From Sipunculus nudus (Eukaryota > Annelida > Sipuncula > Golfingiida > Sipunculidae): a stretch of 64,000 nucleotides of DNA. Under the pieces are notes generated by a model. It was not told the origin of the DNA. It did not search any database and saw only the letters and a list, made by a program, of their open reading frames with translations. The position numbers and the translations under genes are program-made. The stretch lies in contig CM049309.1 in NCBI GenBank assembly GCA_026874595.1, forward strand, positions 95,316,723 to 95,380,722, given 5' to 3'. This document shows positions 9,218-50,248 of this stretch, in pieces (position 1 is the first letter of the stretch; every line of letters starts with the position of its first letter).

Positions 9218-9259
<42 letters not shown>

Positions 9260-22855: not shown

Positions 22856-23472
22856 CAGTCGAACCTCTATAATGTAACAACTGTTAAATAAACACTGCCC
22901 TAGGCCCTGGTCTAGTTTTCATGTATTCTGACTACTAGTGATGGGCCAGAGGGGCATTTAGCTGTGTCACCTCATCACAGAGTATTAACTGGGTGAATGA
23001 GCAGGGCTTCCTTCCACCCTTGGTAGCCAATCAAACAAATATTAATTAATTAGCACAGAGCATCTAGTCTGGGATGACCTCTGATAATCTAATTAAAATG
23101 CATGCATCCCAAGCTTAGTCTTGAGTCAAGTAGATTATAATCATTATTATGCAATGTTCACTTGTACACCTGTAATTTTGGTTCATTTGTTTTGATTGTT
23201 GTTATTAAATTTATGATTATTATTAATAAATAATTAAGAATTAATACTATCTTAATAACTTTAAAAGCACTATAAAGAAGGCTTACAAAGTTGATATAAT
23301 GAGATAGTTCATCCTTGAAAATCCAAGAAGTGCCCACATTAGCTCAGGAAAACTGTCCACTTTACAGAATATAGAGGTGCCCACATTAGCTAAACATAAT
23401 AAAGAGAAGAAAAAACGGGACTGTCCAAAAGTGCCCACTTTATAGAGGTGCCCACGAGGAGAGGTTCCACTG
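22856..23472. mobile_element. Non-autonomous TIR transposon, 617 bp, TA duplication
   Basis: The left end CAGTCGAACCTCTATAA and the right end GAGGTTCCACTG are inverted repeats (reading CAGTCGAACCTCT against CAGTGGAACCTCT). Both ends are flanked by TA (22854-22855 and 23473-23474), the target duplication of Tc1/mariner/pogo elements. CAGT-AACCTC ends are typical of the pogo/Tigger group. The interior has no transposase frame and includes short internal repeats of GTGCCCACATTAGCT near 23330-23390. It is best called a MITE-type derivative. Confidence 0.75.
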
Positions 23473-23999
23473 TATATTCAATACTGAGCAAGTGGGAAAG
23501 TTAAAAAAAAAATTGTCAAACGTTAGGGAGGTCTTACAGTAGTGTCACTTAACATATAAAACTGCCTTGTCTTGCTGAAGTGATACTAATAAGCCTTACA
23601 TAACCCCCTAGGGTTTGATGACGTTTGTTTTCTTTCGCTTAAATTGTTTTCTTCCGTTCATTATTTGCGCTAGGTCTCCAATACGGCAGATTTTTCCAAT
23701 CCATATCTTCAGGGAAAATAATAGCCAAAAGTGACAGATTTTCATCAGATATTTGTCGGTAGGGGGAGGCATCTTTGTGATAGCTCGACGATTTAAGAAA
23801 GGCGCCCATTCACCTACCTTTTGAAAAAGAATATATGTGATTTCTGGCTTCCTCTGTGTATACATTAATGATCTAAGGGTTATTTTGGTTGTGAAAAGTT
23901 CTAATAAGGTTGTATATTTATATAAAATCACATTAGCAAAGACAAAGTTGACCACCCAAATGATGATAATAATGGTAATGTTCTACTTGTTTGAAGTCA
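23473..23999. other. No supported gene
   Basis: A 115-codon minus-strand frame (23608-23955) is the longest non-repeat frame nearby. It has no recognisable motif and is not called; it abuts the left edge of the 24-kb array. Confidence 0.4.
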
Positions 24000-25414
24000 T
24001 GTATATAAGGTGTATTCAACCTGACGGTACGATGTATACAGTTCGATGTATACAGTACGATATATACAGTACGATGTATACAATACGATGTATAATGAGT
24101 AATCATCCTGACAGCCCATGTATACATTACGATATATACAGTACGATGTATACAGTTCGATGTATACAGTTCGATGTATACAGTACGATGTATACAGTAC
24201 GATGTATAAGGAGTATTCATCCTGACGGTACGATGTATACAGTTCGATGTATACAGTACGATGTATACAGTACGATGTATACAATACGATGTATAAGGAG
24301 TATTCATCCTGACGGTACGATCTATACAGTACGATGTATGCAGTACGATGTATACAGTACGATGTAAACAGTACGATGTATACAGTTCGATGTATACAGT
24401 ACGATGTAAACAGTACGATGTATACAGTTCGATGTATAGAGTACGATGTAAACAGTACGATGTATAAGGAGTATTCATCCTGACGGTCAATGTATACAGT
24501 TCGATGTATAGAGTACGATGTAAACAGTACGATGTATAAGGAGTAATCATCCTGAGAGCACGATGTATACAGTACGATGCATACAGTGCGATGTATACAG
24601 TATGATGTATACAGTATGATATATACAGTACGATGTATACAGTACGATGTATAAGGAGTAATCATCCTGACAGCACGGTATATAAAGTACGATGTATACA
24701 GTACGATGTACACAGTACGATGTATACAGCACGATGTATAAGGAGTAATCATCCTGACAGCACGAAGTATACAGTACGATGTGTACAGTACGATGTATAA
24801 GGAGTATTTATCCTGACAGCACGATGTATACAGAACGATGTTTACAGTACGATGTATACAGTACGATGTATACAGTACGATGTATAAGGAGTTATCATCC
24901 AGACAGCACGATATATACAGTACGATGTATACAGTACGATGTATAAGGAGTATTCATCCTGACAGCACGATGTACACAGAACGATGTATACAGTACGATG
25001 TATACAGTACAATGTGTACAGTACGATGTACAAGGAGTAATCATCCTGACAGTAGGATGTATACAGTACGATGTATACAGTACGATGTATATAGTACGAT
25101 GTATCAGGAGTAATCATCCTGACAGCACGATGTATACAGTACGATGTATACAGTACGATGTATACAGTACGATGTATACAGTACGATGTATAAGGAGTAT
25201 TTATCCTGACAGCACGATGTATACAGAACGATGTATACAGTACGATGTATAAGGAGTATTTATCCTGACAGCACGATGTATACAGAACGATGTATACAAT
25301 ACGATGTATAAGGAGTTATTATCCTGACAGCACGATGTATACAGAACGATGTATACAGTACGATGTATAAGGAGTAATTATCCTGACAGCACGATGTATA
25401 CAGAACGATGTATA

Positions 25415-28400
25415 CAATACGATGTATAAGGAGTCTTCTTCCTGACAGCACGATGTATACAGAACGATGTATATAGTACGATGTATAAGAAGCAATCATT
25501 CTGACATCACGATATATACAGTACGATGCATACAATACGATATATAAGGAGTAATCATCCTGACAGCACGATGTATACAGAACGATGTATAAAGTACGAT
25601 GTATTAGGAGTATTCATCGTGACAGCACGATGTATAGAGAACGATGTATACAGTACGATGTATAGAGTATGATGTTTTCTGTACGATGTATAAGGAGTAA
25701 TCATTCTGACATCACGATTCATATGGTACGATGCATACAGGACGAAGTATACAGAACGATGTATAAAGTACGATGTTTTCTGTACGATGTATAAGGAGTA
25801 ATCATTCTGACATCACGATTCATATGGTACGATGTATACAGTACGATGTATACAGTACAATGTTTACAGTACGATGTATAAGGAGTAATCATTCTGACAT
25901 CACGATGTATATAGTACGATGTATACAGTACGATGTATAAGGAGCAATCATTCGGAAATCACGATGTATAAAGTACGAGGTATACAGTACGATGTATACA
26001 GTACGATGTATAAGGAATGATCATTCTGACATCATGACGTATATAGTACGATGTATACAGTAAGATGTATACAGAACGATATATACAGTACGATGTATAA
26101 GGAGTATTCATCCTGACAGCACGATGTATACAGAACGATGTTTACAGTACGATGTATAAGGAGTATTCATCCTGACAGCACGATGAGAACAGGACGCTGT
26201 ATACAGTACCATGTATAAGGAGTATTCATCTTGACAGCACGATGTATACAGAACGATATATACAGTACGATGTATACAGTACGATGTATACAGTACGATC
26301 TATAAGAAGCAATCATTCTGACATCACGATGTATACAGTACGATGCATACAGTACGATGTATACAGTGCGATGTATAAGGAATGATCATTCTGACATCAC
26401 GATGTATATAGTACGATGTATACAGTACGATGTATACAATACGATATATATACAGTACGATGCTTACAGTGAGATATATCAGGAGTAATCATTCTTACAT
26501 CACGATGTATATAGTACGATGTATAGAGTACGATGTATAGAGTACGATGTATACAGTACGATGTATACAGTACGATGTATAAGGAGTATTTATCCTGACA
26601 GCACGATGTTTACAGAACGATGTATACAGTACGATGTATAAGGAGTAATTATCCTGACAGCACGATGTTTACAGAACGATGTATACAGTACGATGTATAA
26701 GGAGTATTTATCCTGACAGCACGATGTTTACAGAACGATGTATACAGTACGATGTATAAGGAGTAATTATCCTGACAGCACGATGTTTACAAAACGATGT
26801 ATACAGTACGATCTATTAAGAGGAGTAATTATCCTGACAGCACGATGTTTACAGAACGATGTATACAGTACGATGTATAAGGAGTAATTATCTGACAGCA
26901 CGATGTATACAGAACGATGTATATAGTACGATGTATAAGAAGCAATCATTCTGACATCACGATATATACAGTACGATGCATACAGTACGATGTATACAGT
27001 GCGATGTATAAGGAATGATCATTCTGACATCACGATGTATTTAGTACGATATATACAGTACGATGTATAAGGAGTAATCATTCTGACATCACGATGTTTA
27101 TAGTATGATATATACAGTGCGATGTATACAGTACGATATATAGGGAATTATCATTCTGACATGACGATGTATATAGTACGATGTATACAGTACGATGTAT
27201 ACAGTACGATGTATACAGTAAAATGTATACAGTACAATGTATAAGGAGTAATCATTCTGACATCACAAAATATATATTACGATGTATACAGTAAGTTGTA
27301 TACAGTACGATATATAAGGAGTAATCATTCTGAAATCACGATGTATATAGTACGATGTTTACAGTGGGATGTATACAGTACGATGTTTAAGGATAAATCA
27401 TTCTGACATCATGATGTATAAAGTACGATGTATACAGTACGATATATTCAGTACAATGAATACAGTACGATATAAGGAGTAATAATTCTGACAGCAAGAT
27501 GTATATAGTACGATGTATATGGAATAATCATTCTGACATCACAATGTATATAGTACAAAGTATACAGCACGATGAATACAGTAAGAGGTATAATGAGTAA
27601 TCATTCTGATATCACGATGAATAAAGTACGATGCATACAGGACGATGTATACACTACGATGTATACAGTACGATGTATACAGTACGATGTAGAAGGACTA
27701 ATCATTCTGACATCACAATGTATATAGGATGATGTATACAGTATGATGTATACAGTACGATGTTTACAGTACGATGTATACAGTACGATGAATAAGGAGT
27801 AATCATTCTGACATCACGATGTATATACTACGATGTATACAGTACGATGTATACAGTACGATATATAAGGAGTAATCATTCTGAAATCGCGATGTATATA
27901 GTACGATGTTTACAGTACGATGTATACAGTACGATGTATAAGGAGTATTCATCGTGACAGCACGGTGTATACAGAACGATGTATACAGTACGATGTATAC
28001 AGTACGATATTTACTGAACGATGCACAATGAGTAATCATCCTCACAATACAATGTATACAGTACGATGTATAAGGAGTATTCATCCTGACAGCATGATGT
28101 ATACAGAACGATGTATACAGTACGATGTATAAGGAGTATTCATCGTGACAGCACGGTGTATACAGAACGATGTATACAGTACGATGTATACAGTACGATG
28201 TATATGGTACGATGTTTACAGTACGATGTATACAGTAAGATGTATAAAGTACGATATATAAGGAGTAATCATCCTGAAAGCACGATGTATACAGAACGAT
28301 GTATATAGTACGATGTATAAGGAGTATTCATCGTGACAGCATCATGTATACAGAACGATGTATTCAGTACGATGTATACAGTACGATGTATACAGTACGA

Positions 28401-28446
28401 TGTATAAGGAGTAATCATTCTGACATCACGATTCATATGGTACGAT
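25415..28446. repeat. Higher-order block A (3,197-bp spacing), first copy
   Basis: This block recurs at +3,197 bp (28612-31643). Only about five substitutions were noticed over 3 kb, for example T to A near 26290, T to C near 26410, two changes near 27165-27180 and T to A near 27355. The left breakpoint is shared at a GGAGTCTTCTTCCTGACAGC unit. The 166 bp between the copies are themselves built from motifs found at 25.55-25.83 kb. Confidence 0.92.
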
Positions 28447-28611
28447 GCATACAGGACGAAGTATACAGAACGATGTATAAAGTACGATGTTTTCTGTACG
28501 ATGTATAAGGAGTAATCATTCTGACATCACGATTCATATGGTACGATGCATACAATACGATATATAAGGAGTAATCATCCTGACAGCACGATGTATACAG
28601 AACGATGTATA

Positions 28612-31600
28612 AAGTACGATGTATAAGGAGTCTTCTTCCTGACAGCACGATGTATACAGAACGATGTATATAGTACGATGTATAAGAAGCAATCATTCTG
28701 ACATCACGATATATACAGTACGATGCATACAATACGATATATAAGGAGTAATCATCCTGACAGCACGATGTATACAGAACGATGTATAAAGTACGATGTA
28801 TTAGGAGTATTCATCGTGACAGCACGATGTATAGAGAACGATGTATACAGTACGATGTATAGAGTATGATGTTTTCTGTACGATGTATAAGGAGTAATCA
28901 TTCTGACATCACGATTCATATGGTACGATGCATACAGGACGAAGTATACAGAACGATGTATAAAGTACGATGTTTTCTGTACGATGTATAAGGAGTAATC
29001 ATTCTGACATCACGATTCATATGGTACGATGTATACAGTACGATGTATACAGTACAATGTTTACAGTACGATGTATAAGGAGTAATCATTCTGACATCAC
29101 GATGTATATAGTACGATGTATACAGTACGATGTATAAGGAGCAATCATTCGGAAATCACGATGTATAAAGTACGAGGTATACAGTACGATGTATACAGTA
29201 CGATGTATAAGGAATGATCATTCTGACATCATGACGTATATAGTACGATGTATACAGTAAGATGTATACAGAACGATATATACAGTACGATGTATAAGGA
29301 GTATTCATCCTGACAGCACGATGTATACAGAACGATGTTTACAGTACGATGTATAAGGAGTATTCATCCTGACAGCACGATGAGAACAGGACGCTGTATA
29401 CAGTACCATGTATAAGGAGTATTCATCTTGACAGCACGATGTATACAGAACGATATATACAGTACGATGTATACAGTACGATGAATACAGTACGATCTAT
29501 AAGAAGCAATCATTCTGACATCACGATGTATACAGTACGATGCATACAGTACGATGTATACAGTGCGATGTATAAGGAATGATCATTCTGACATCACGAT
29601 GTATATAGTACGATGCATACAGTACGATGTATACAATACGATATATATACAGTACGATGCTTACAGTGAGATATATCAGGAGTAATCATTCTTACATCAC
29701 GATGTATATAGTACGATGTATAGAGTACGATGTATAGAGTACGATGTATACAGTACGATGTATACAGTACGATGTATAAGGAGTATTTATCCTGACAGCA
29801 CGATGTTTACAGAACGATGTATACAGTACGATGTATAAGGAGTAATTATCCTGACAGCACGATGTTTACAGAACGATGTATACAGTACGATGTATAAGGA
29901 GTATTTATCCTGACAGCACGATGTTTACAGAACGATGTATACAGTACGATGTATAAGGAGTAATTATCCTGACAGCACGATGTTTACAAAACGATGTATA
30001 CAGTACGATCTATTAAGAGGAGTAATTATCCTGACAGCACGATGTTTACAGAACGATGTATACAGTACGATGTATAAGGAGTAATTATCTGACAGCACGA
30101 TGTATACAGAACGATGTATATAGTACGATGTATAAGAAGCAATCATTCTGACATCACGATATATACAGTACGATGCATACAGTACGATGTATACAGTGCG
30201 ATGTATAAGGAATGATCATTCTGACATCACGATGTATTTAGTACGATATATACAGTACGATGTATAAGGAGTAATCATTCTGACATCACGATGTTTATAG
30301 TATGATATATACAGTGCGATGTATACAGTACGATATATAGGGAATTATCATTCTGACATCACGATGTATAAAGTACGATGTATACAGTACGATGTATACA
30401 GTACGATGTATACAGTAAAATGTATACAGTACAATGTATAAGGAGTAATCATTCTGACATCACAAAATATATATTACGATGTATACAGTAAGTTGTATAC
30501 AGTACGATATATAAGGAGTAATCATTCTGAAATCACGATGTATATAGTACGATGATTACAGTGGGATGTATACAGTACGATGTTTAAGGATAAATCATTC
30601 TGACATCATGATGTATAAAGTACGATGTATACAGTACGATATATTCAGTACAATGAATACAGTACGATATAAGGAGTAATAATTCTGACAGCAAGATGTA
30701 TATAGTACGATGTATATGGAATAATCATTCTGACATCACAATGTATATAGTACAAAGTATACAGCACGATGAATACAGTAAGAGGTATAATGAGTAATCA
30801 TTCTGATATCACGATGAATAAAGTACGATGCATACAGGACGATGTATACACTACGATGTATACAGTACGATGTATACAGTACGATGTAGAAGGACTAATC
30901 ATTCTGACATCACAATGTATATAGGATGATGTATACAGTATGATGTATACAGTACGATGTTTACAGTACGATGTATACAGTACGATGAATAAGGAGTAAT
31001 CATTCTGACATCACGATGTATATACTACGATGTATACAGTACGATGTATACAGTACGATATATAAGGAGTAATCATTCTGAAATCGCGATGTATATAGTA
31101 CGATGTTTACAGTACGATGTATACAGTACGATGTATAAGGAGTATTCATCGTGACAGCACGGTGTATACAGAACGATGTATACAGTACGATGTATACAGT
31201 ACGATATTTACTGAACGATGCACAATGAGTAATCATCCTCACAATACAATGTATACAGTACGATGTATAAGGAGTATTCATCCTGACAGCATGATGTATA
31301 CAGAACGATGTATACAGTACGATGTATAAGGAGTATTCATCGTGACAGCACGGTGTATACAGAACGATGTATACAGTACGATGTATACAGTACGATGTAT
31401 ATGGTACGATGTTTACAGTACGATGTATACAGTAAGATGTATAAAGTACGATATATAAGGAGTAATCATCCTGAAAGCACGATGTATACAGAACGATGTA
31501 TATAGTACGATGTATAAGGAGTATTCATCGTGACAGCATCATGTATACAGAACGATGTATTCAGTACGATGTATACAGTACGATGTATACAGTACGATGT

Positions 31601-31643
31601 ATAAGGAGTAATCATTCTGACATCACGATTCATATGGTACGAT
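28612..31643. repeat. Higher-order block A, second copy
   Basis: Second copy of the 25415-28446 block. Identity stops near 31643, where the partner reads GATGCATACAGG and this copy reads GATGTAGACGG. Confidence 0.92.
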
Positions 31644-34600
31644 GTAGACGGTACGATGTATACAGTACGATGTATAAGGAATGATCATTCTGACATTACG
31701 ATGTATATAGTACGATGTATACAGTACGATGTATACAGTACGATGCTTAGAGTACGAAGTATAAGGAGTAATCATTCTGACATCACGATGTATATAGTAC
31801 AATGCATACAATAAGATTTATACAGTACGATGTATAAGGAGTAATCATTCTGACATCATGATGTATAAAGTATGATGTATACAGTACGATGTATACAGCA
31901 GGATATATAGGGAATAACCATTCTGACATCACGATGTATACAGTACGATGCATACAGTACGATGTATACAGTACGATGTATAAGGAATAATCATTCTGAC
32001 ATCACGATGTATATAGTACGATTTATAGAGTACGATGTATACAGTACGATGTATACAGTACGATGTATAAGGAGTAATCATTCTGACATCTCGATGTATT
32101 TAGTACGATATATACATTACGATGTATACAGTACGATGTATAAGGAATGATCATTCTGACATTACGATGTATAGAGTATGATGTAAACAGTACGATGTAT
32201 ACAGTACGATACTTACAGTGCGATATATAAGGAGTAATCATTCTGAAATCACGATGTATATAGTACGATGTTTACAGTGGGATGTATACAGTACGATGTT
32301 TAAGGATAAATCATTCCGACATCATGATGTATAAAGTACGGTGTATACGGTACGATGTATTCAGTACTATGAATACAGTACGAAATAAGGAGTAATAATT
32401 CTGACAGCAAGATGTATACAGTACGATGTATATGGAATAATCATTCTGACATCACAATGTATATAGTACGAAGTATACAGAACAATGTATACAGTACGAT
32501 GTATAAGGAGTAATCATTCTGACATCTCGATGTATTTAGTACGATATATACATTACGATGTATACAGGACGATGTATAAGGAATGATCATTCTGACATTA
32601 CGATGTATATAGTACGATGTAAACAGTGCGATGTATACAGTACGATGCTTACTGTGCGATATATAAGGAAGAATCATTCTGAAATCACGATGTATATAGT
32701 AAAAGGTTTACAGTGGGATGTATACAGTACGATGTTTAAGGATAAATCATTCTGACATCATGATGTATAAAGTACGGTGTATACAGTACGATGTATTCAG
32801 TACTATGAATACAGTACGAAATAAGGAGTAATAATTCTGACAGCAAGATGTATACAGTACGATGTATATGGAATAATCATTCTGACATCACAATGTATAT
32901 AGTACGAAGTATACAGAACAATGTATACAGTACGATGTTTAAGGAGTAATCATTCTGATATCAAGATGTATAAAGTACGATGCATACAGGATGATGTATA
33001 CACTACGATGTATAGAGTACGATCTATACAGTACGATGTATAAGGAGTAATCATTCTGACATCACAATGTATATAGGATGATGTATACAGTATGATGTAT
33101 ACAGTACAATGTTTACAGTACGATGTATATGGAATAATCATTCTGACATCACAATGTATATAGTACGAAGGATACAGAACAATGTATACAGTACGATGTT
33201 TAAGGAGTAATCATTCTGATATCAAGATGTATAAAGTACGATGCATACAGGATGATGTATACACTACGATGTATAGAGTACGATCTATACAGTACGATGA
33301 ATAAGGAGTAATCATTCTGACATCACAATGTATATACTACGATGTATACGGTACGATGTATACAGTACGATATATAAGGAGTAATCATTCTGAAATCGCG
33401 ATGTATATAGTACGATGTTTACAGTGCGATGTATAAGGAGTATTCATCCTGACAGCATGATGTATACAGAACGATGTATACAGTACGATGTATAAGGAGT
33501 ATTCATCGTGACAGCACGGTGTATACAGTACGATGTATACAGTACGATGTATACAGTACGATGTTTACTGTACGATGTACAAGGAGTAATCATCCTTACA
33601 ATACGATGTATACAGTACGATGTATAGAGTACGATGTATAGAGTACGATGTATACAGTACGATGTTTACAGTACGATGTATACAGTAAGATGTATAAAGT
33701 ACGATATATAAGGAGTAATCATCCTGACAGCACGATGTATACAGAACGATGTATATAGTACGATGTATAAGGAGTATTCATTCTGACATCACGATGTATA
33801 GAGTACGATATATACAGTACGATGTAAACAGTAGCATGTATAAGGAGTAACCATTCTGACATCACGATGTTTACAGTACGATGGATACAGTACGATGTAT
33901 ACAGTACGATGCTTAGAGTACGAAGTATAAGGAGTAATCATTCTGACATCACGATGTATATAGTACAATGCATACAGTAAGATTTATACAGTACGATATA
34001 TAAGGAGTAATCATTCTGACATCACGATGTATAGAGTACGATATATACAGTACGATGTATACAGTAGCATGTATAAGGAGTAACCATTCTGACATCATGA
34101 TGTATACATTACGATGGATACAGTACGATGTATACAGTACTATGTATAAGGAATGATCATTCTGACATTACGATGTATATAGTACGATGTATACAGTACG
34201 ATGTATACAGTACGATGCTTACAGTGCGATATATAAGGAGTAATCATTCTTACATCACGATGTATATAGTACGATGTATAGAGTACGATGTATACAGTAC
34301 GATGTATACAGTACGATGTATAAGGAGTATTTATCATGACAGCACGATGTATACAGAACGATGTATACAGTACGATGTATAAGGAGTATTTATCCTGACA
34401 TCACGATGTATACAGGACGATGTATAAGGATAAATCATTCTGACATCATGATGTATATAGTACGATGTATATAGTACGATTTATACAGTACGATAAATAC
34501 AGTACGATATAAGGAGTAATCATTCTGACAGCAAGATGTATACAGTACGATGTACAAGGAGTAATCATTCTGACAGCAAGATGTATACAGCACGATGTAT

Positions 34601-36559
34601 AAGGAGCAATCATTCTGACATCACAATGTATAAAGTACGATGTATACAGTACGATGTATACAGTGTGATGTATAAGGAGTAATCATTCTGATATCACGAT
34701 GTATAAAATACGATGCATACAGGACGATGTATACACTACGATGTATAAGGAATGATCATTCTGACATTACGATGTATATAGTACGATGTATACAGTAGGA
34801 TGTATACAGTACGATGCTTACAGTGCGATATATAAGGAGTAATCATTCTTACATCACGATGTATATAGTACGATGTATAGAGTACGATGTATACAGTACG
34901 ATGTATACAGTACGATGTATACAGTACGATGTATAAGGAGTATTTATCCTGACAGCACTATGTATACAGAACGATGTATACAGTACGATGTATAAGGAGT
35001 AATTATCCTGACATCACGATGTATACAGAACGATGTATACAGTACGATGTATAAGGAGTAATCATCCTGACAGCACGATGTATACAGAACGATGTATAAG
35101 GATAAATCATTCTGACATCATGATGTATATAGTACCATGTATACAGTACAATAAATACAGTACGATTTATACAGTACGATGTATACACTACGATCCTTGC
35201 AGTGCGATATATAAGGAGTAATCATTCTTACATCACGATGTATATAGTACGATTTTTACAGTGGGATGTATACAGTACGATGTATACAGTACGATGTATA
35301 AGGAATGATCATTCTGACATTACGATGTATATAGTACGATGTATAGAGTACGATTTATACAGTACGATGTATACAGTACGATGAATACAGTACGATGTAT
35401 AAGGAGTATTTATCCTGACAGCACTATGTATACAGAACGATGTATACAGTACGATGTATAAGGAGTAATTATCCTGACATCACGATGTATACAGAACGAT
35501 GTATACAGTACGATGTATAAGGAGTAATCATCCTGACAGCACGATGTATACAGAACGATGTATAAGGATAAATCATTCTGACATCATGATGTATATAGTA
35601 CGATGTATACAGTACAATAAATACAGTACGATAAATACAGTACGATATAAGGAGTAATCATTCTGACAACAAGATGTATACAGTATAATGTATAAGGAGT
35701 AATCATTCTGACAGCAAGATGTATACAGCACGATGTATAAGGAGTAATCATTCTGACATCACAATGTATAAAGTACGATGTATACAGTACGATGTATACA
35801 GTACGATGTATAAGGAGTAATCATTCTGTCATCACAATGTATATAGGATGATGTATACAGTATGATGTATACAGTACCATGTTTACAGTACGATGTATAC
35901 AGTACGATGAATAAGGAGTAATCATTCTGACTTCACAATGTATATACTACGATGTATACGGTACGATGTATACAGTACGATATATAAGGAGTAATCATTC
36001 TGAAATCGCGATGTATATAGTACGATGTTTACAGTGCGATGTATAAGGAGTATTCATCCAGACAGCATGATGTATACAGAACGATGTAAACAGTACGATG
36101 TATAAGGAGTATTCATCGTGACTGCACGGTGTATACAGTACGATGTATACAGTACGATGTATACAGTACGATGTTTACTGTACGATGTACAAGGAGTAAT
36201 CATCCTTACAATACGATGTATATAGTACGATGTATACAGTACGATGTATAGAGTACGATGTATACAGTACGATGTTTACAGTACGATGTATACAGTAAGA
36301 TGTATAAAGTACGATATATAAGGAGTAATCATCCTGACAGCACGATGTATACAGAACGATGTATATAGTACGATGTATAAGGAGTATTCATCGTGACAGC
36401 ACGATGTATACAGAACGATGTATACAGTACGATGTATACATTACGATGTATACAGTACGATGTATAAGGAGTTATCATTCTGACATCACGATTAATATGG
36501 TACGATGTAGACGATACGATGTATAAAGTACGATGTATAAGGAATGATCATTCTGACAT

Positions 36560-39530
36560 TACGAAGTATATAGTACAATGCATACAGTAAGATTTATACA
36601 GTACGATGTATAAGGAGTAATCATTCTGACATCACGATGTATAGAGTACGATATGTACAGTACGATGTATACAGTAGCATGTATAAGGAGTAACCATTCT
36701 GACATCACGATGTATACAGTACGATGGATTCAGTACGATGTATACAGTGCTATGTATAAGGAATGATCATTCTGACATTACGATGTATATAGTACGATGT
36801 ATACAGTACGATGTATACAGTACGATGCTTACAGTGCGATATATAAGGAGTAATCATTCTTACATCACGATGTATATAGTACGATGTATAGAGTACGATG
36901 TATAGAGTACGATGTATACAGTACGATGTATACAGTACGATGTATAAGGAGTATTTATCATGAAAGCACGATGTATACAGAACGATGTATACAGTTAATG
37001 TATAAGGAGTATTTATCATGACAGCACGATGTATACAGAACGATGTATACAGTACGATGTTTAAGGAGTATTTATCCTGACATCACGATGTATACAGAAC
37101 GATGTTTAAAGATAAATCATTCTGACATCATGATGTATATAGTACGATGTATATAGTACGATTTATACAGTACGATAAATACAGTACGATATAAGGAGTA
37201 ATCATTCTGACAGCAAGATGTATACAGTACGATGTACAAGGAGTAATCATTCTGACAGCAAGATGTATACAGCACGATGTATAAGGAGCAATCATTCTGA
37301 CATCACAATGTATATAGTACGATGTATAAGGAGTATTCATCGTGACAGCACGATTTATACAGAACGATGTATACAGTACGATGTATACAGTACGATGTAT
37401 ACAGTACGATGTATAAGGAGTTATCATTCTGACATCACGATTAATATGGTACGATGTAGACGATACGATGTATAAAGTACGATGTATAAGGAGTAATCAT
37501 TCTGACATCACGATGTATAAAGTACGATATGTACAGTACGATGTATACAGTAGCATGTATAAGGAGTAACCATTCTGACATCACGATGTTTACAGTACGA
37601 TGGATACAGTACGATGTATACAGTACGATGCTAAGAGTACGAAGTATAAGGAGTAATCATTCTGACATCACGATGTATATAGTACAATGCATACAGTAAG
37701 ATTTATACAGTACGATGTATAAGGAGAAATCATTCTGACATCACGATGTATAGAGTACGATATGTACAGTACGATGTATACAGTAGCATGTATAAGGAGT
37801 AACCATTCTGACATCACGATGTATACAGTACGATGGATTCAGTACGATGTATACAGTGCTATGTATAAGGAATGATCATTCTGACATTACGATGTATATA
37901 GTACGATGTATACAGTACGATGTATACAGTACGATGCTTACAGTGCGATATATAAGGAGTAATCATTCTTACATCACGATGTATATAGTACGATGTATAG
38001 AGTACGATGTATAGAGTACGATGTATACAGTACGATGTATACAGTACGATGTATAAGGAGTATTTATCATGAAAGCACGATGTATACAGAACGATGTATA
38101 CAGTTAATGTATAAGGAGTATTTATCATGACAGCACGATGTATACAGAACGATGTATACAGTACGATGTTTAAGGAGTATTTATCCTGACATCACGATGT
38201 ATACAGAACGATGTTTAAAGATAAATCATTCTGACATCATGATGTATATAGTACGATGTATATAGTACGATTTATACAGTACGATAAATACAGTACGATA
38301 TAAGGAGTAATCATTCTGACAGCAAGATGTATACAGTACGATGTACAAGGAGTAATCATTCTGACAGCAAGATGTATACAGCACGATGTATAAGGAGCAA
38401 TCATTCTGACATCACAATGTATATAGTACGATGTATAAGGAGTATTCATCGTGACAGCACGATTTATACAGAACGATGTATACAGTACGATGTATACAGT
38501 ACGATGTATACAGTACGATGTATAAGGAGTTATCATTCTGACATCACGATTAATATGGTACGATGTAGACGATACGATGTATAAAGTACGATGTATAAGG
38601 AGTAATCATTCTGACATCACGATGTATAAAGTACGATATGTACAGTACGATGTATACAGTAGCATGTATAAGGAGTAACCATTCTGACATCACGATGTTT
38701 ACAGTACGATGGATACAGTACGATGTATACAGTACGATGCTAAGAGTACGAAGTATAAGGAGTAATCATTCTGACATCACGATGTATATAGTACAATGCA
38801 TACAGTAAGATTTATACAGTACGATGTATAAGGAGAAATCATTCTGACATCACGATGTATAGAGTACGATATATACAGTACGATGTATACAGTAGCATGT
38901 ATAAGGAGTAACCATTCTGACATCACGATGTATACAGTACGATGGATTCAGTACGATGTATACAGTGCTATGTATAAGGAATGATCATTCTGACATTACG
39001 ATGTATATAGTACGATGTATACAGTACGATGTATACAGTACGATGCTTACAGTGCGATATATAAGGAGTAATCATTCTTACATCACGATGTATATAGTAC
39101 GATGTATAGAGTACGATGTATACAGTACGATGTATACAGTACGATGTATACAGTACGATGTATAAGGAGTATTTATCATGAAAGCACGATGTATACAGAA
39201 CGATGTATACAGTTAATGTATAAGGAGTATTTATCATGACAGCACGATGTATACAGAACGATGTATACAGTACGATGTATAAGGAGTATTTATCCTGACA
39301 TCACGATGTATACAGAACGATGTTTAAAGATAAATCATTCTGACATCATGATGTATATAGTACGATGTATATAGTACGATGTATACAGTACGATAAATAC
39401 AGTACGATATAAGGAGTAATCATTCTGACAGCAAGATGTATACAGTACGATGTACAAGGAGTAATCATTCTGACAGCAAGATGTATACAGCACGATGTAT
39501 AAGGAGCAATCATTCTGACATCACAATGTA
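36560..39530. repeat. 1,109-bp higher-order repeat, about 2.7 copies
   Basis: Landmarks recur at exactly +1,109: the block with ACAATGCATACAGTAAGATT at about 36569, 37678 and 38787, and the short-unit anomaly CAGTTAATGTATAAGG near 36992, 38101 and 39210. Differences are few. Parts of the same block occur again near 40080-40960 and 45050-45950. Confidence 0.92.
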
Positions 39531-40079
39531 TAAAGTACGATGTATACAGTACGATGTAAACAGTATGATGTATAAGGAGTAATCATTCTGATATCACGAT
39601 GTATAAAATACGATGCATACAGGACGATGTATACACTACGATGTATAAGGAATGATCATTCTGACATTACGATGTATATAGTACGATGTATACAGTAGGA
39701 TGTATACAGTACGATGCTTACAGTGCGATATATAAGGAGTAATCATTCTTACATCACGATGTATATAGTACGATGTATAGAGTACGATGTATACAGTACG
39801 ATGTATACAGTACGATGTATACAGTACGATGTATAAGGAGTATTTATCCTGACAGCACTATGTATACAGAACGATGTATACAGTACGATGTATAAGGAGT
39901 AATTATCCTGACATCACGATGTATACAGAACGATGTATACAGTACGATGTATAAGGAGTAATCATCCTGACAGCACGATGTATACAGAACGATGTATAAG
40001 GATAAATCATTCTGACATCATGATGTATATAGTACCATGTATACAGTACAATAAATACAGTACGATTTATACAGTACGA

Positions 40080-43000
40080 TGTATAAGGAGTAATCATTCT
40101 GACATCACGATGTATAGAGTACGATATGTACAGTACGATGTATACAGTAGCATGTATAAGGAGTAACCATTCTGACATCACGATGTTTACAGTACGATGG
40201 ATACAGTACGATGTATACAGTACGATGCTAAGAGTACGAAGTATAAGGAGTAATCATTCTGACATCACGATGTATATAGTACAATGCATACAGTAAGATT
40301 TATACAGTACGATGTATAAGGAGAAATCATTCTGACATCACGATGTATAGAGTACGATATATACAGTACGATGTATACAGTAGCATGTATAAGGAGTAAC
40401 CATTCTGACATCACGATGTATACAGTACGATGGATTCAGTACGATGTATACAGTGCTATGTATAAGGAATGATCATTCTGACATTACGATGTATATAGTA
40501 CGATGTATACAGTACGATGTATACAGTACGATGCTTACAGTGCGATATATAAGGAGTAATCATTCTTACATCACGATGTATATAGTACGATGTATAGAGT
40601 ACGATGTATAGAGTACGATGTATACAGTACGATGTATACAGTACGATGTATAAGGAGTATTTATCATGAAAGCACGATGTATACAGAACGATGTATACAG
40701 TTAATGTATAAGGAGTATTTATCATGACAGCACGATGTATACAGAACGATGTATACAGTACGATGTATAAGGAGTATTTATCCTGACATCACGATGTATA
40801 CAGAACGATGTATAAAGATAAATCATTCTGACATCATGATGTATATAGTACGATGTATATAGTACGATGTATACAGTACGATAAATACAGTACGATATAA
40901 GGAGTAATCATTCTGACAGCAAGATGTATACAGTACGATGTACAAGGAGTAATCATTCTGACAGCAAGATGTATACAGCACGATGTATAAGAAGCAATCA
41001 TTCTGACATCACAATGTATAAAGTACGATGTATACAGTACGATGTAAACAGTATGATGTATAAGGAGTAATCATTCTGATATCACGATGTATAAAATACG
41101 ATGCATACAGGACGATGTATACACTACGATGTATAAGGAATGATCATTCTGACATTACGATGTATATAGTACGATGTATACAGTAGGATGTATACAGTAC
41201 GATGCTTACAGTGCGATATATAAGGAGTAATCATTCTTACATCACGATGTATATAGTACGATGTATAGAGTACGATGTATACAGTACGATGTATACAGTA
41301 CGATGTATACAGTACGATGTATAAGGAGTATTTATCCTGACAGCACTATGTATACAGAACGTTGTATACAGTACGATGTATAAGGAGTTATTATCCTGAC
41401 ATCACGATGTATACAGAACGATGTATACAGTACGATGTATAAGGAGTAATCATCCTGACAGCACGATGTATACAGAACGATGTATAAGGATAAATCATTC
41501 TGACATCATGATGTATATAGTACCATGTATACAGTACAATAAATACAGTACGATAAATACAGTACGATATAAGGAGTAATCATTCTGACAGCAAGATGTA
41601 TACAGTATGATGTATAAGGAGTAATCATTCTGACAGCAAGATGTATACAGCACGATGTATAAGGAGTAATCATTCTGACATCACAATGTATAAAGTACGA
41701 TGTATACAGTACGATGTATACAGTATGATATATAAGGAGTAATCATTCTGATATCACGATGTATAAAGTACGATGCATACAGGACGATGTATACAGTACA
41801 ATGTATACAGTACGATGTATACACCACGATATATAAGGAGTAGTCATTCTGACATCACAATGTATATAGTATGATGTATACAGTACGATGTATACAGTAC
41901 GATATTTAAGGATAAATCATTCTGACATCATGATGTATAGTACGATGTATACAGTACGATGTATTCAGTACAATGAATACAGATACGATATAAGGAGTAA
42001 TAATTCTGACAGCAAGATGTTTATAGAACCATGTATATGGAATAATCATTCTGACATCACAATGTATATAGTATGAAGTATACAGCACGATGTATAAAGT
42101 AAGCGGTATAAGGATAAATCATTCTGACAGCACGATGTATATAGTACGATGTATACAGTATGATGAATACAGTCCGATATAAGGAGTATTCATTCTGACA
42201 TCAAGATGTATACAGTACGATGAAGAAGCAGTAGTCATTCTGACATCACCGTGTATATAGTACGATGTATACAGTACGATGTATAAGTAGTAGTCATTCT
42301 GACATCACGATGTATAAAGTACGATGTATACAGTACGATGTATACAGTACGATATATAAGGAGTAATCATTCTGACATCACGATGTAAACAGTACGATGT
42401 ATACAGTACGATGTATAAGGAGTAATCACTCTGACCTCACGATGTATATAGTACGATGTATACAATACGATGTATAAAGAGTAATCATTCTGACAGCACG
42501 ATGTATAGAGTACGATGTATACAGTACGATATATAAGGAGACATCATTCTGACATCACGATGTATATAGTACGATGTATACAATACGATGTATAAAGAGT
42601 AATCATTCTGACAGCACGATGTATAGAGTACGATGTATACAGTACGATATATAAGGAGACATCATTCTGACATCACGATGTATATAGTACGATGTATACA
42701 ATACGATGTATAAAGAGTAATCATTCTGACAGCACGATGTATATAGTACGATGTATTCAGTATGATTTATAAGGAGTAATCATTCTGACATCACGATGTA
42801 TATAGTACGATGTATACAGTATGATTTATAAAGAGTAATCATTCTGACAGCACGATGTATAGAGTACGATGTATTCAGTACGATAAATATGGAGAAATCA
42901 TTCTGACATCACGATGTATATAGTACGATATGTAAGGAATAATCATTCTGACATCACGATGTATATAGAACGATGTATACAGTACGATGTATACAGTACA

Positions 43001-43360
43001 TTGTAAACAGTACGATGAAGAAGTAATCATTCTGACAGCAAGATGTAAAAATTATGATGTATTAAATGACGATGTTTATAGTATGATGTAAATATTGAAA
43101 TGTATACAGTACGATGTATAAGGAGTAATCATTCTGAAAGCACGATGTATACAGTACGATGTATACAGTGCGATGTATAGAGGTAATCATTCTGACAGTA
43201 CGATGTATACAGTACGATGTATACAGTACGATGTATAAGGAGTAATCATTCTGACAGTACGATGTATACACTACGATGTATAGAGTACGATGTATACAGT
43301 ACGATGAATACAGTACGATATAAGGAGTAATCATTCTGACAGCAAGATGGATACAGTACG
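40080..43360. repeat. Higher-order block B (about 4.97 kb), first copy
   Basis: Matches 45053-48100. The offset is 4,973 bp over the left half (for example 41482 and 46455) and falls to about 4,741 bp at the right (43181 and 47922) because of internal length differences. It contains the only non-canonical tail of the array (TGATGTAAATATTGAAATG near 43083), also seen at 47824. Confidence 0.85.
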
Positions 43361-45052
43361 ATGTATACAGTACGATGTATAAGGAGTATTTATCCTGACA
43401 TCACGATGTATACAGGACGATGTATAAGGATAAATCATTCTGACATCATGATGTATATAGTACGATGTATATAGTACGATTTATACAGTACGATAAATAC
43501 AGTTCGATATAAGGAGTAATCATTCTGACAGCAAGATGTATACAGTACGATGTACAAGGAGTAATCATTCTGACAGCAAGATGTATACAGCACGATGTAT
43601 AAGGAGCAATCATTCTGACATCACAATGTATAAAGTACGATGTATACAGTACGATGTATACAATATGATGTATAAGGAATAATCATTCTGATATCACGAT
43701 GTATAAAATACGATGCATACAGGACGATGTATACACTACGATGTATAAGGAATGATCATTCTGACATTACGATGTATATAGTACGATGTATACAGTACGA
43801 TGTATACACTACGATCCTTGCAGTGCGATATATAAGGAGTAATCATTCTTACATCACGATGTATATAGTACGATTTTTACAGTGGGATGTATACAGTACG
43901 ATGTATACAGTACGATGTATAAGGAATGATCATTCTGACATTACGATGTATATAGTACGATGTATAGAGTACGATTTATACAGTACGATGTATACAGTAC
44001 GATGAATACAGTACGATGTATAAGGAGTATTTATCCTGACAGCACTATGTATACAGAACGATGTATACAGTACGATGTATAAGGAGTAATTATCCTGACA
44101 TCACGATGTATACAGAACGATGTATACAGTACGATGTATAAGGAGTAATCATCCTGACAGCACGATGTATACAGAACGATGTATAAGGAGTAATCATTCT
44201 GACATCACAATGTATAAAGTACGATGTATACAGTACGATGTATACAGTACGATGTATAAGGAGTAATCATTCTGTCATCACAATGTATATAGGATGATGT
44301 ATACAGTATGATGTATACAGTACCATGTTTACAGTACGATGTATACAGTACGATGAATAAGGAGTAATCATTCTGACTTCACAATGTATATACTACGATG
44401 TATACGGTACGATGTATACAGTACGATATATAAGGAGTAATCATTCTGAAATCGCGATGTATATAGTACGATGTTTACAGTGCGATGTATAAGGAGTATT
44501 CATCCAGACAGCATGATGTATACAGAACGATGTAAACAGTACGATGTATAAGGAGTATTCATCGTGACTGCACGGTGTATACAGTACGATGTATACAGTA
44601 CGATGTATACAGTACGATGTTTACTGTACGATGTACAAGGAGTAATCATCCTTACAATACGATGTATATAGTACGATGTATACAGTACGATGTATAGAGT
44701 ACGATGTATACAGTACGATGTTTACAGTACGATGTATACAGTAAGATATATAAAGTACGATATATAAGGAGTAATCATCCTGACAGCACGATGTATACAG
44801 AACGATGTATATAGTACGATGTATAAGGAGTATTCATCGTGACAGCAAGATGTATACAGAACGATGTATACAGTACGATGTATACAGTACGATGTATACA
44901 GTACGATGTATAAGGAGTAATCATTCTGACATCACGATTAATATGGTACGATGTAGACGATACGATGTATAAAGTACGATGTATAAGGAATGATCATTCT
45001 GACATTACGATGTATATAGTACAATGCATACAGTAAGATTTATACAGTACGA

Positions 45053-48000
45053 TGTATAAGGAGTAATCATTCTGACATCACGATGTATAGAGTACGATAT
45101 GTACAGTACGATGTATACAGTAGCATGTATAAGGAGTAACCATTCTGACATCACGATGTTTACAGTACGATGGATACAGTACGATGTATACAGTACGATG
45201 CTAAGAGTACGAAGTATAAGGAGTAATCATTCTGACATCACGATGTATATAGTACAATGCATACAGTAAGATTTATACAGTACGATGTATAAGGAGAAAT
45301 CATTCTGACATCACGATGTATAGAGTACGATATACACAGTACGATGTATACAGTAGCATGTATAAGGAGTAACCATTCTGACATCACGATGTATACAGTA
45401 CGATGGATTCAGTACGATGTATACAGTGCTATGTATAAGGAATGATCATTCTGACATTACGATGTATATAGTACGATGTATACAGTACGATGTATACAGT
45501 ACGATGCTTACAGTGCGATATATAAGGAGTAATCATTCTTACATCACGATGTATATAGTACGATGTATAGAGTACGATGTATAGAGTACGATGTATACAG
45601 TACGATGTATACAGTACGATGTATAAGGAGTATTTATCATGAAAGCACGATGTATACAGAACGATGTATACAGTTAATGTATAAGGAGTATTTATCATGA
45701 CAGCACGATGTATACAGAACGATGTATACAGTACGATGTATAAGGAGTATTTATCCTGACATCACGATGTATACAGAACGATGTATAAAGATAAATCATT
45801 CTGACATCATGATGTATATAGTACGATGTATATAGTACGATGTATACAGTACGATAAATACAGTACGATATAAGGAGTAATCATTCTGACAGCAAGATGT
45901 ATACAGTACGATGTACAAGGAGTAATCATTCTGACAGCAAGATGTATACAGCACGATGTATAAGGAGCAATCATTCTGACATCACAATGTATAAAGTACG
46001 ATGTATACAGTACGATGTAAACAGTATGATGTATAAGGAGTAATCATTCTGATATCACGATGTATAAAATACGATGCATACAGGACGATGTATACACTAC
46101 GATGTATAAGGAATGATCATTCTGACATTACGATGTATATAGTACGATGTATACAGTAGGATGTATACAGTACGATGCTTACAGTGCGATATATAAGGAG
46201 TAATCATTCTTACATCACGATGTATATAGTACGATGTATAGAGTACGATGTATACAGTACGATGTATACAGTACGATGTATACAGTACGATGTATAAGGA
46301 GTATTTATCCTGACAGCACTATGTATACAGAACGATGTATACAGTACGATGTATAAGGAGTTATTATCCTGACATCACGATGTATACAGAACGATGTATA
46401 CAGTACGATGTATAAGGAGTAATCATCCTGACAGCACGATGTATACAGAACGATGTATAAGGATAAATCATTCTGACATCATGATGTATATAGTACCATG
46501 TATAAAGTACGATGTATACAGTACGATGTATACAGTATGATATATAAGGAGTAATCATTCTGATATCACGATGTATAAAGTACGATGCATACAGGACGAT
46601 GTATACAGTACAATGTATACAGTTCGATGTATACACTACGATATATAAGGAGTAGTCATTCTGACATCACAATGTATATAGTATGATGTATACAGTACGA
46701 TCTATACAGTACGATATTTAAGGATAAATCATTCTGACATCATGATGTATAGTACGATGTATACAGTAGATGTATTCAGTACAATGAATACAGATACGAT
46801 ATAAGGAGTAATAATTCTGACAGCAAGATGTTTATAGAACCATGTATATGGAATAATCATTCTGACATTACAATGTATATAGTACGAAGTATACAGCACG
46901 TTGTATAAAGTAAGCGGTATAAGGATAAATCATTCTGACAGCACGATGTATATAGTACGATGTATACAGTATGATGAATACAGTCCGATATAAGGAGTAT
47001 TCATTCTGACATCAAGATGTATACAGTACGATGAAGAAGCAGTAGTCATTCTGACATCACCGTGTATACAGTACGATGTATACAGTACGATATATAAGGA
47101 GTAATCATTCTGACATCACGATGTAAACAGTACGATGTATACAGTACGATGTATAAGGAGTAATCATTCTGACCTCACGATGTATATAGTACGATGTATA
47201 CAATACGATGTATAAAGAGTAATCATTCTGACAGCACGATGTATAGAGTACGATGTATACAGTACGATATATAAGGAGACATCATTCTGACATCACGATG
47301 TATATAGTACGATGTATACAATACGATGTATAAAGAGTAATCATTCTGACAGCACGATGTATAGAGTACGATGTATACAGTACGATATATAAGGAGACAT
47401 CATTCTGACATCACGATGTATATAGTACGATGTATACAATACGATGTATAAAGAGTAATCATTCTGACAGCACGATGTATATAGTACGATGTATTCAGTA
47501 CGATGTATAAGGAGTAATCATTCTGACATCACGATGTATATAGTACGATGTATACAGTATGATTTATAAAGAGTAATCATTCTGACAGCACGATGTATAG
47601 AGTACGATGTATTCAGTACGATAAATATGGAGAAATCATTCTGACATCACGATGTATATAGTACGATATGTAAGGAATAATCATTCTGACATCACGATGT
47701 ATATAGAACGATGTATACAGTACGATGTATACAGTACATTGTAAACAGTACGATGTATAAGAAGTAATCATTCTGAAAGCACGATGTATAAATTATGATG
47801 TATTCAATGACGATGTTTATAGTATGATGTAAATATTGAAATGTATACAGTACGATGTATAAGGAGTAATCATTCTGAAAGCACGATGTATACAGTACGA
47901 TGTATACAGTGCGATGTATAGAGGTAATCATTCTGACAGTACGATGTATACAGTACGATGTATACAGTACGATGTATAAGGAGTAATCATTCTGACAGTA

Positions 48001-48100
48001 CGATGTATACACTACGATGTATAGAGTACGATGTATACAGTACGATGAATACAGTACGATATAAGGAGTAATCATTCTGACAGCAAGATGGATACAGTAC
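45053..48100. repeat. Higher-order block B, second copy
   Basis: Right-hand copy of block B, forming the right end of the array. The sequence between the two copies (43.38-45.05 kb) instead resembles 35.3-36.6 kb, so the array has been shuffled by more than one duplication. Confidence 0.85.
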
Positions 48101-48184
48101 GATGTATAAGGAGTAATCATTCTGACATCACAATGTATATAGTACGATGTATACAGTATGATGCATACAGTATGATGTATACAA

Positions 48185-50248
48185 AACTATCGTTTCTTCA
48201 TTGGTATAGACGTAAATGCTCCTATAACGTGATTAACCACAAGAGGGTTGTTTTAGCCTTGAAGTGCAAAATGTCATCTCTCTACAGAAATATATTATAA
48301 CAGCTAAGAAATTTTAAAATGTATCTCAGTATAACACACAACAATGTACGTGGATATAAAGGATGAGAGGGACGTCTGTGAAAAGACACCATAAATAAGC
48401 TTTTCTAAGAAGAAGAAAAAATTACCTAAAATCATATCTATATCCAAAATACAGTTAATTTGACAGTTATTAGTATGTTATGTCATAAAAAATAATTTAT
48501 CCTTACTTTAGTCCTTTTTTTTGGTACTGGTGTGACTACAATGACGATTTGTAATGTCAGTTATTTCAAAATCTAATATATTTGCAAATTACAACTCCTG
48601 ATATAAAAAAATTGTGAGATATTTATATTTCTATCGGTTGATTTTGGGAGACTTTTAGTATGTAAAACTACATAGCTTACGAAAATTCATTCTTCAAACA
48701 GAAATACTGTTGCAATTTTTACATTTTGTCTTTTTTTCTGGCTAGTGTAGATGGCCTTTAAAGCATTTCCACTCTTGAATTCACCAAAATACCAAAACAT
48801 TTAAAAAGCCTGAAACAAATTTCCTTTTCCATGATTCCCCATATTCTAACAACAGTATTGTTAAAAAATACAGTTTACACTTTCGTGAAAAGGGTCTTGT
48901 AATGTGGTTTTGTAAAGAGTTTTTTTTCAACCGCCCCAAGCGGCACAAAGGCTAGGTACGCCGCTGTGTATACTAATTTTGTGTACTTGATTAATTACGC
49001 AATTTATGACCTACGTACCCCTCCAAAGAGCATATTAGGGTTTTAGATTTTATTTCTGTTTCAATATTAGGGTATTTGGAGGTGGGATGGGGGATGATGG
49101 GGGGTGGACTCTCACAGATTCCACCATCAATTACAATTCTTTTCTTTTTGCTTTTTTTCTGCTTGTGTTTACGTTACATCTACAGTCTGCAGCACGGAGG
49201 AACTACCACACACGTCATAGTAGCACGAAGAAATATATTGTATTCAAAACAGCTCGTGACAGGCAATCAGAAAACTGATTTTATCAGTCAGCTGCAACGT
49301 TCTGCCTGTATGCCCATCCTGTGTTTGTATGAATGAGGTTCTTCTATATTTGGATTTTTACCACTGTTCTTTGGACGCTTTATAGTACAATCATGTTTAT
49401 GTGTACTCCCAACAGGAAGTAAACCTGCTGTACACTGTCTCCTCTTCATTTTATCTTTTATTAGTTAGTGTAAACTTTTTATACTTATTATTTATAACAA
49501 ACTATTCAAATTTAATTTATGCGTTCGATCTCTCACGTTAAAGAGTTTAAATGAAGTTTTATGACAGTTTGCCTCCTGCTGATACTGTATGAATTACAGG
49601 TTTTTTTTAGATAAAGGTAAAACTGTTACTCATGTTTATTTGCATAATATTTTGTGGCTGAACGTACAGCCAATATCCCCGTAATTTCAGTGATCAATCA
49701 TTAAAGAAATTCAAAGTATCCGTAAACAAGTCTGACTTGTCTAAAACCGTATCTAGTTTGCTTGTCCTTCAATTCGGGATGTTGGAATGAAAAAAAATTT
49801 GACATATTTGCCGTGAGACATCAGTATAGTGCTGAAGTTCAACTTGGTACGACTTTATTTTAAGTCGTACCAAAGAAATGGCGATATTTCGTGTGATGCT
49901 TAAGATAATGCAAAGTTTGGCCAGCTGGGGATTTTTTTTTTAAATTTGTTCTCCATATCTGATGTACATTTTAATTAATATATTTCAATGATTTAAAACT
50001 CCACAAGGTAGCGGGGCTTTTCATCATCCCCTTGGTCCGTTACTTCGTTTGTCTGCCAGTAATTTCACGATAAGCAATCCCTTAAATATTTAAGGAAAAT
50101 TAGATGACGATAATGTTTTTCTAATTTAATGAATAATATACCATTGTGAGGATATCCATTGGTACTGAATTATTTGTTTGCTTTGTTTAAGCGATCTCCT
50201 GTGAACCCGGCTGGTGCACCTTGACCCTTTGTACACAAGAACAGACTT
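48185..50248. other. AT-rich, no supported gene
   Basis: Unique-looking sequence. Overlapping frames at 49076-49336 show a hydrophobic run but no recognisable domain. A single transposon-end-like motif lies at 48952-48966. Confidence 0.5.
48952..48966 (-). other. Solitary hAT/MITE-like terminal motif
   Basis: CTAGGTACGCCGCTG is the reverse complement of CAGCGGCGTACCTAG, a form of the CAG-GGCGTA end found on many hAT-type MITEs. No partner end or 8-bp target duplication was found within 800 bp, so it may be a relic or chance. Confidence 0.3.

What the first reader, a model, noticed from the sequence alone, without database searches (positions are those of the whole stretch)
24000..48184. 24-kb array whose 14-bp monomer carries a perfect palindrome
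Each ACGATGTATACAGT monomer contains TGTATACA, which is its own reverse complement, and GTAC is formed at the joints. A single strand could form hairpins every 14 bp over 24 kb, and both strands look alike to a sequence-specific binder. Long arrays of such a short, regular palindrome are unusual. A structural role or a replication or recombination hotspot is my inference.
Basis: partly seen in the sequence, partly recalled or inferred. Interest (0 to 1): 0.75.

Follow-up and report, generated by a model that had tools for sequence, protein, structure and literature searches.

The report
Large single-locus two-unit minisatellite array
A 24-kb stretch of short repeats in a large, probably eukaryotic genome is real and occurs at one place only, but its "palindrome" looks like a chance feature of a short repeat, and the array is best read as an ordinary, recently expanding minisatellite.

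Summary
The array is real (24027-48184) but is not a uniform 14-bp palindrome array. It mixes 990 14-bp units (A, ACGATGTATACAGT; 285 exact) with 334 31-bp units (B, A plus a 17-bp insert), in A(1-10)B blocks of one orientation. The 8-bp palindrome survives in 471 of 978 full-length A units; its position 11 is the least conserved base; 9.8% of shuffled 14-mers carry one as long. Predicted folding of array windows is like that of shuffles. By equal counts, all 857 forward near-matches to an A dimer in the genome lie in this array. It grew recently: 17,240 of 24,158 bp lie in near-identical internal pairs (0-0.94% divergent, up to 3,030 bp), and units stay in register. It lies 2.16 Mb from a contig end among other minisatellites; 2 of 16 background 10-kb samples fall in arrays of 6.78 kb or more. 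Its right edge abuts the inner end of a dispersed inverted-repeat element's arm. Verdict: a large single-locus complex minisatellite, a new member of a known kind. Allele polymorphism and assembly artefact could not be tested.

The parts
24027..48184 (+). Tandem array of 990 14-bp A units and 334 31-bp B units in A(1-10)B blocks, all units in one orientation
   Evidence: TRF; unit parse; strand counts; block analysis
23997..24026 (+). Degenerate B-like unit at the left edge
   Evidence: by eye on the sequence; not scored
25418..31644 (+). Pair of 3,030-bp segments (25418-28447 and 28615-31644, lag 3,197), 5 mismatches (0.17%): the largest near-identical pair
36566..41554 (+). Overlapping near-identical segments: 36566-38423 / 37675-39532 (0.27%) and 38585-40066 / 40073-41554 (0.40%)
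40064..46504 (+). 1,468-bp segment 40064-41531 repeated at 45037-46504 (0.20%)
42325..47755 (+). 693-bp segment 42325-43017 repeated at 47063-47755 (0.43%)
48189..48744 (+). Arm of a dispersed inverted-repeat element (mostly 71-78% identity to 39 other scored places); its inner end abuts the array
23798..23909 (+). About 110-bp dispersed repeat (mostly 89-95% identity to its copies), about 90 bp left of the array
23100..23478 (+). Dispersed repeat remnant (87-95% identity to 39 other scored candidates); the query began at 23100, so it may extend further left

Best explanation
It is a large, single-locus, complex minisatellite about 2.16 Mb from a contig end. Shown: two related units (A, 14 bp; B = A with a 17-bp insert) form composite A(n)B blocks, and the array holds many near-identical internal segments of about 0.4-3 kb in register with the units. 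Inferred: these segments arose by unequal homologous exchange or repair synthesis between misaligned repeats (unequal crossing-over, sister-strand invasion or replication slippage), and the array has no function tied to the palindrome. TGTATACA is then an accident of the founding 14-mer.
For: Single locus: the genome has 857 forward matches to the A dimer at up to 3 mismatches, and the window alone has 857; all 78 exact 24-mers are listed in it. B core: 255 of 259 forward matches lie in the window; the other 4 and the 1 reverse match are at the level of the reversed-pattern control (3 and 6). Composite blocks: 334 blocks, 186 distinct, mean 72 bp; the first A after a B has its own plurality consensus (ACGATGTATATAGT), and BB never occurs (84.3 expected if order were random, units not being independent). 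Recent growth: 16 near-identical pairs (lags searched up to 15,999) covering 17,240 of 24,158 bp, 0-0.94% divergent. Register held: apart from a 2-bp edge piece, the 43 off-length units of 1,324 are within 3 bp of 14 or 31, as homologous rather than end-joined junctions would leave. Palindrome not kept: position 11 is the consensus in 0.733 of A units, the lowest of 14; double changes 0/16/7/6 against 0.6/23.8/3.2/3.0 expected, and 0/6/2/2 against 1.0/6.4/1.8/2.1 among distinct units; 8 of the 29 compensate. Setting: neighbouring 10-kb stretches are 41-79% tandem repeat; 2 of 16 background stretches lie in arrays of 6.78 kb or more.
Against: BB is never seen although 46 blocks have one A, which free gain and loss of single A units would not predict. 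Two of the four dyad pairs show about twice the expected double changes in the raw counts (not among distinct units). CpG observed/expected is 1.61 in the array against 0.61 and 0.40 on the two sides, so some chromatin peculiarity is not excluded. No reads, second haplotype or relative were available, so polymorphism, the central prediction, is untested. Near-identical segments could include assembly errors. Whether the contig is a whole chromosome is not known.
Confidence: 0.85

Rival explanations
1. The palindrome is functional: each TGTATACA extrudes a hairpin or cruciform, or is bound by a dimeric protein, giving the array a structural or recombination role.
For: 473 copies of the 8-mer in 24 kb against 11 in 200 kb sampled elsewhere; dyad density 0.389 against 0.344 in shuffles; palindromes of different units pair in an artificial five-copy strand (13 of 200 shuffles as stable); two of four dyad pairs with about twice the expected double changes in raw counts.
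Against: About half of full-length A units and the B consensus lack it; the most variable base lies inside it; among distinct units double changes are at expectation. Array windows fold no better than shuffles on either strand. 9.8% of random 14-mers would have it. The count of the 8-mer follows from repetition alone.
Confidence: 0.05
2. The array was seeded by the inner end of the arm of the dispersed inverted-repeat element that it abuts, as tandem repeats inside the foldback element Tetris seeded satellite arrays in Drosophila virilis, and then expanded.
For: Homology to dispersed copies starts at window 48189, five bases after the array ends, in 8 of 43 non-self match rows, and in none of them earlier; in paired copies this is the inner side of the arm. 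Of six of these 8 copies read at this point, five carry a shared inner stretch of about 60-75 bp and the sixth the nearer 45 bp or so; the window has the array there. By eye, L048 has TGTATAAG..GAGT..CAT..GACATCA like the B unit.
Against: Alignment scores of that stretch to the array are mostly within shuffles: of 18 comparisons the lowest counts are 12, 26 and 32 of 500 shuffles (L048 and L050 to the array tail, L050 to the unit model), and 12 of 18 are above 100. TRF finds no tandem repeat at the boundary in the six copies, only two weak two-copy rows further inward. The other arm was not found left of the array in the window.
Confidence: 0.2
3. Part of the length is an assembly artefact (duplicated repeat copies).
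For: Near-identical 3.0-kb and 1.9-kb segments adjoin or overlap their copies; no reads were available.
Against: The copies differ at scattered sites (5 of 3,030; 5 of 1,858), the window has no Ns, and divergent units make up much of the array (246 distinct unit variants).
Confidence: 0.1

Closest known systems
Large human minisatellite at 16q24.1 (8.7 kb, 33-bp unit; PMC4411736, passages read)
   Same: Single-locus (in human) imperfect minisatellite of many kb, flanked by dispersed repeats; that paper reports that human minisatellites over 1 kb cluster near centromeres and telomeres.
   Different: Ours is longer (24 kb), uses two interleaved units, and its polymorphism is untested.
Complex (multi-unit) tandem repeats of the human genome (PMC10502081, passages read)
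   Same: One array composed of more than one unit type.
   Different: There, complex arrays tend to have units under 10 bp and minisatellites tend to be single-unit; here the units are 14 and 31 bp.
Subtelomeric minisatellite expansions in frogs (PMC10794172, passages read)
   Same: Tandem repeats expanded in extended subtelomeres, attributed there to unequal crossing-over.
   Different: The minisatellite described there comes from a SINE spread through the genome and expanded at subtelomeric copies; this one is at one place only.
Tetris/TIR-220 satellite arrays of Drosophila virilis (PMC4079207, passages read)
   Same: Tandem array next to the arm of an inverted-repeat element.
   Different: There the repeats are part of the arm; here derivation from the arm was tested and not shown.
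Dyad-rich centromeric sequences (PMC9070824, passages read)
   Same: Short dyads under 10 bp repeated along a region.
   Different: Here the dyads are not visibly maintained, the array is small and 2.16 Mb from a contig end, and centromere identity was not examined.

Membership tests
Minisatellite / complex tandem repeat | Head-to-tail units of about 7-100 bp | tested here: met
   14- and 31-bp units, one orientation
Minisatellite / complex tandem repeat | Locus-specific array rather than a genome-wide family | tested here: met
   857 forward near-matches in the genome, 857 in the window
Minisatellite / complex tandem repeat | Turnover by in-register duplication and homogenisation | tested here: met
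   16 near-identical pairs; off-length units within 3 bp except one edge piece; the mechanism itself is inferred
Minisatellite / complex tandem repeat | Length polymorphism between alleles (VNTR) | not testable with these tools
   one haplotype, no reads
Dyad-symmetric (non-B-forming) satellite | Predicted hairpin potential above shuffles | tested here: not met
   mean z -0.33 (+) and -0.59 (-), like the flanks; dyad density a little above shuffles (0.389 vs 0.344); cruciform extrusion under supercoiling was not modelled
Dyad-symmetric (non-B-forming) satellite | Dyad maintained by compensating change | tested here: not met
   8 of 29 double changes compensate; double changes at expectation among distinct units, twice it at two of four pairs in raw counts
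Satellite seeded inside a foldback/TIR element | Repeat unit recognisably part of the element | tested here: inconclusive
   18 alignments against shuffles, lowest 12 of 500, 12 of 18 above 100 of 500
Satellite seeded inside a foldback/TIR element | Array bounded by both arms | tested here: not met
   right arm only; blastn found no inverted arm in window 1-24026, only matches of 35 bp or less
Protein-coding repeat | Unit length keeping an open frame | tested here: not met
   14 and 31 are not multiples of 3; longest stop-to-stop frame overlapping the array 318 aa, at its left edge, no Pfam match; it was the only frame lying mostly in the array given to Pfam

The most novel reading that the evidence does not exclude
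The array is a single-locus, CpG-dense (1,112 CpG, observed/expected 1.61) chromatin element whose hundreds of identical dyad sites load a dimeric DNA-binding protein: a functional macrosatellite built from 14-bp units. Nothing here shows binding, methylation or transcription.
Probability: 0.04. Interest if true: 0.6.

Novelty: new member of a known kind. Interest (0 to 1): 0.22.

Why it matters
It is a well-resolved example of how a giant minisatellite grows: composite blocks, in-register kb-scale duplications, a single locus and one edge at a dispersed element's arm. The palindrome result is a useful caution: a 14-bp unit of this composition carries an 8-bp palindrome by chance in about one case in ten, and repetition then multiplies it.

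Tried and rejected
Rfam (gathering thresholds) and tRNA scans of the window: nothing. Pfam on ten frames of the window: one reverse-transcriptase fragment at 14050-14364 and no hit for the one array frame given. Hairpin role: rejected on folding and conservation. Coding array: rejected by unit lengths. Origin from the neighbouring element's arm: suggestive by eye, not supported by shuffles. Left flank as the other arm or as inner part of the element: no convincing match. Polarity along the array: A-unit identity to consensus is flat, 0.888-0.940 per kb. Literature: in six answered searches of open-access papers I saw only the top 8 to 12 listings of each and no paper on this array among them; none of the searches used its sequence, and the species is unknown to me. 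Whether other large arrays of this genome are also single-locus and a COX1 search to place the host did not complete.

Full report
What is there. The window lies at C4:95316723-95380722 of a 1.43-Gb assembly in 153 contigs. C4 is 97,527,750 bases long, so the array (C4:95340749-95364906) ends 2.16 Mb from the contig end. TRF finds an array at 24027-48183, period 14, 64% matches, with further periods such as 45, 59, 73 and 87. A dynamic-programming parse with two units accounts for these periods: 990 A units (ACGATGTATACAGT, 14 bp) and 334 B units (ACGATGTATAAGGAGTAATCATTCTGACAGC, 31 bp), where B is A with 17 bp inserted after ATGTATA. Runs of A before a B are 1 to 10 long (46, 95, 82, 69, 33, 3, 5 and 1 blocks with 1, 2, 3, 4, 5, 6, 7 and 10 As), and BB never occurs. 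In blocks with two or more As, the A that follows a B has its own plurality consensus, ACGATGTATATAGT (T at position 11 in 0.43 of 284), and carries the palindrome in 0.29 of cases, against 0.58 of 286 for the A before a B. The repeat is thus a composite A(n)B block, mean 72 bp, 186 distinct among 334.

The palindrome. TGTATACA occurs 473 times in the array. Of 978 A units of exactly 14 bp (12 off-length A units dropped), 471 have it, and no other perfect 8-bp palindrome occurs at that place. Position 11, inside the palindrome, is the least conserved of the 14 (0.733). Changes on both sides of the dyad occur 0, 16, 7 and 6 times for the four pairs, against 0.6, 23.8, 3.2 and 3.0 expected, and 8 of these 29 restore pairing. 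Two pairs are thus at about twice expectation in raw counts, but collapsed to 134 distinct units the counts are 0, 6, 2 and 2 against 1.0, 6.4, 1.8 and 2.1. A shuffled circular 14-mer of the same composition has a palindrome of 8 bp or more in 19,672 of 200,000 trials. Five strands (one array stretch on both strands, two further + stretches and an artificial five-copy strand) gave fold z-scores of -1.57 to +0.99; the most negative is the artificial strand, where palindromes of different units pair (13 of 200 shuffles as good). Thirty random 140-base windows per class gave mean z -0.33 (array +), -0.59 (array -), -0.18 (left flank) and -0.57 (right flank), with z below -2 in 2, 3, 2 and 5 of 30. 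The array is strand-asymmetric: ACGATGTATA occurs 693 times on + and never on -.

One locus. A 24-base A-dimer pattern with up to 3 mismatches has 857 forward matches and 1 reverse match in the genome (reversed-pattern control 1 and 1; only the first 100 places were listed). The window holds 857 forward and 0 reverse, so the counts leave no forward match elsewhere. The exact 24-mer occurs 78 times, all listed in the array. The B core with up to 2 mismatches occurs 259 times forward and once reverse (control 3 and 6), 255 of them in the window. More diverged relatives would have been missed by these patterns.

How it grew. Ungapped comparison of the array with itself (lags 14 to 15,999) gives 16 near-identical segment pairs covering 17,240 of 24,158 bp. 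The largest is 3,030 bp with 5 mismatches at a lag of 3,197; then 1,858 bp with 5 (lag 1,109), 1,482 bp with 6 (lag 1,488), and 1,468 bp with 3 (lag 4,973). The lowest divergence is 0% (401 bp) and the highest 0.94%. Of 1,324 units 44 are off-length; apart from a 2-bp edge piece they are within 3 bp of 14 or 31. No truncated unit marks a junction in this parse, which fits homologous exchange between misaligned repeats rather than random end-joining; that mechanism is inference. Identity to the A consensus is even along the array, 0.888-0.940 per kb.

Setting. Four neighbouring 10-kb stretches (L025-L028) are 79, 49, 76 and 41% tandem repeat of period 7 or more. Of 16 background stretches (L029-L044) two lie in arrays of 6.78 kb or more (L034, whole 10 kb, 52-bp unit; L035, 6,780 bp, 32-bp unit), and the mean tandem fraction is 0.19. 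Long tandem arrays are therefore common here. This sample is small and was not random: I chose round coordinates on contigs 1-10. CpG observed/expected is 1.61 in the array against 0.61 to its left and 0.40 to its right; each consensus unit contains one CpG, so this follows from the unit.

The edges. On the left, 23100-23478 and 23798-23909 are dispersed repeats; about 90 bp separate the latter from the first degenerate unit. On the right, window 48189-48744 matches 39 other scored places (40 of 270 candidates scored, self included; 43 non-self rows), mostly at 71-78% identity. Several copies come as inverted pairs, left copy on - and right copy on +, spanning about 4.5-4.7 kb on C10, C4, C5 and C7 and 1.6 and 0.8 kb on C1 and C11 (my arithmetic). 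This looks like a DNA transposon with long inverted arms; its class was not tested. In that arrangement the array lies on the inner side of the arm. Eight of the 43 rows start at 48189 and none earlier. In six of these eight, read for 300 bases further inward, five share about 60-75 bp (AGAGTGGGCATGGACATC...) and the sixth (L049) the nearer 45 bp or so; TRF finds no tandem repeat at the boundary, only two weak two-copy rows further inward in L049 and L050. The inner stretch resembles the B unit by eye in one or two copies, but in 18 comparisons with 500 shuffles each the lowest counts of shuffles reaching the observed score were 12, 26 and 32, and 12 of 18 were above 100. Against 6,000 background 77-mers the best copy, L050, was matched or exceeded by 130, the others by 698 to 5,034. 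So origin from the element is not shown. A second arm was not found to the left within the window.

Verdict. The array is a large, recently expanding, single-locus complex minisatellite. Its palindrome looks incidental. Closest known cases are the 8.7-kb human 16q24.1 minisatellite (PMC4411736), multi-unit human tandem repeats (PMC10502081), subtelomeric tandem-repeat growth in frogs (PMC10794172), foldback-seeded satellites (PMC4079207) and, for the dyad idea, dyad-rich centromeres (PMC9070824); of each I read passages only.

Noticed in passing
window 302-1717: 36-bp array (39.8 copies) with long open frames on both strands, up to 503 aa stop to stop, 36 being a multiple of 3. Pfam hits of the 503-aa frame are all below the curated cut-offs; the 415-aa frame has none. 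Only 1 CpG in 1.4 kb.
   Followed up: partly
window 56694-64000 and L026 1-1464: 100-bp tandem array running off the window, 94% matches, CpG-poor (observed/expected 0.07), with similar-looking longer-period repeats beyond it in L026-L027.
   Followed up: no
window 53337-54064 and 55861-56588: Two pairs of open frames with identical translations 2,524 bp apart suggest a segment duplication next to the 100-bp arrays.
   Followed up: no
window 9962-10954: 32-bp array of 31 copies with 99% matches: probably very young.
   Followed up: no
window 14050-14364: Reverse-transcriptase fragment (Pfam RVT_1, E 9.2e-08), probably the remnant of a retroelement.
   Followed up: no
L034 1-10000: A background sample that lies wholly inside a 52-bp array with CpG observed/expected 0.07.
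   Followed up: no
window 24027-48184: B is never followed by B (0 in 334 B units; 84.3 expected at random order) although 46 blocks have a single A: unexplained.
   Followed up: partly
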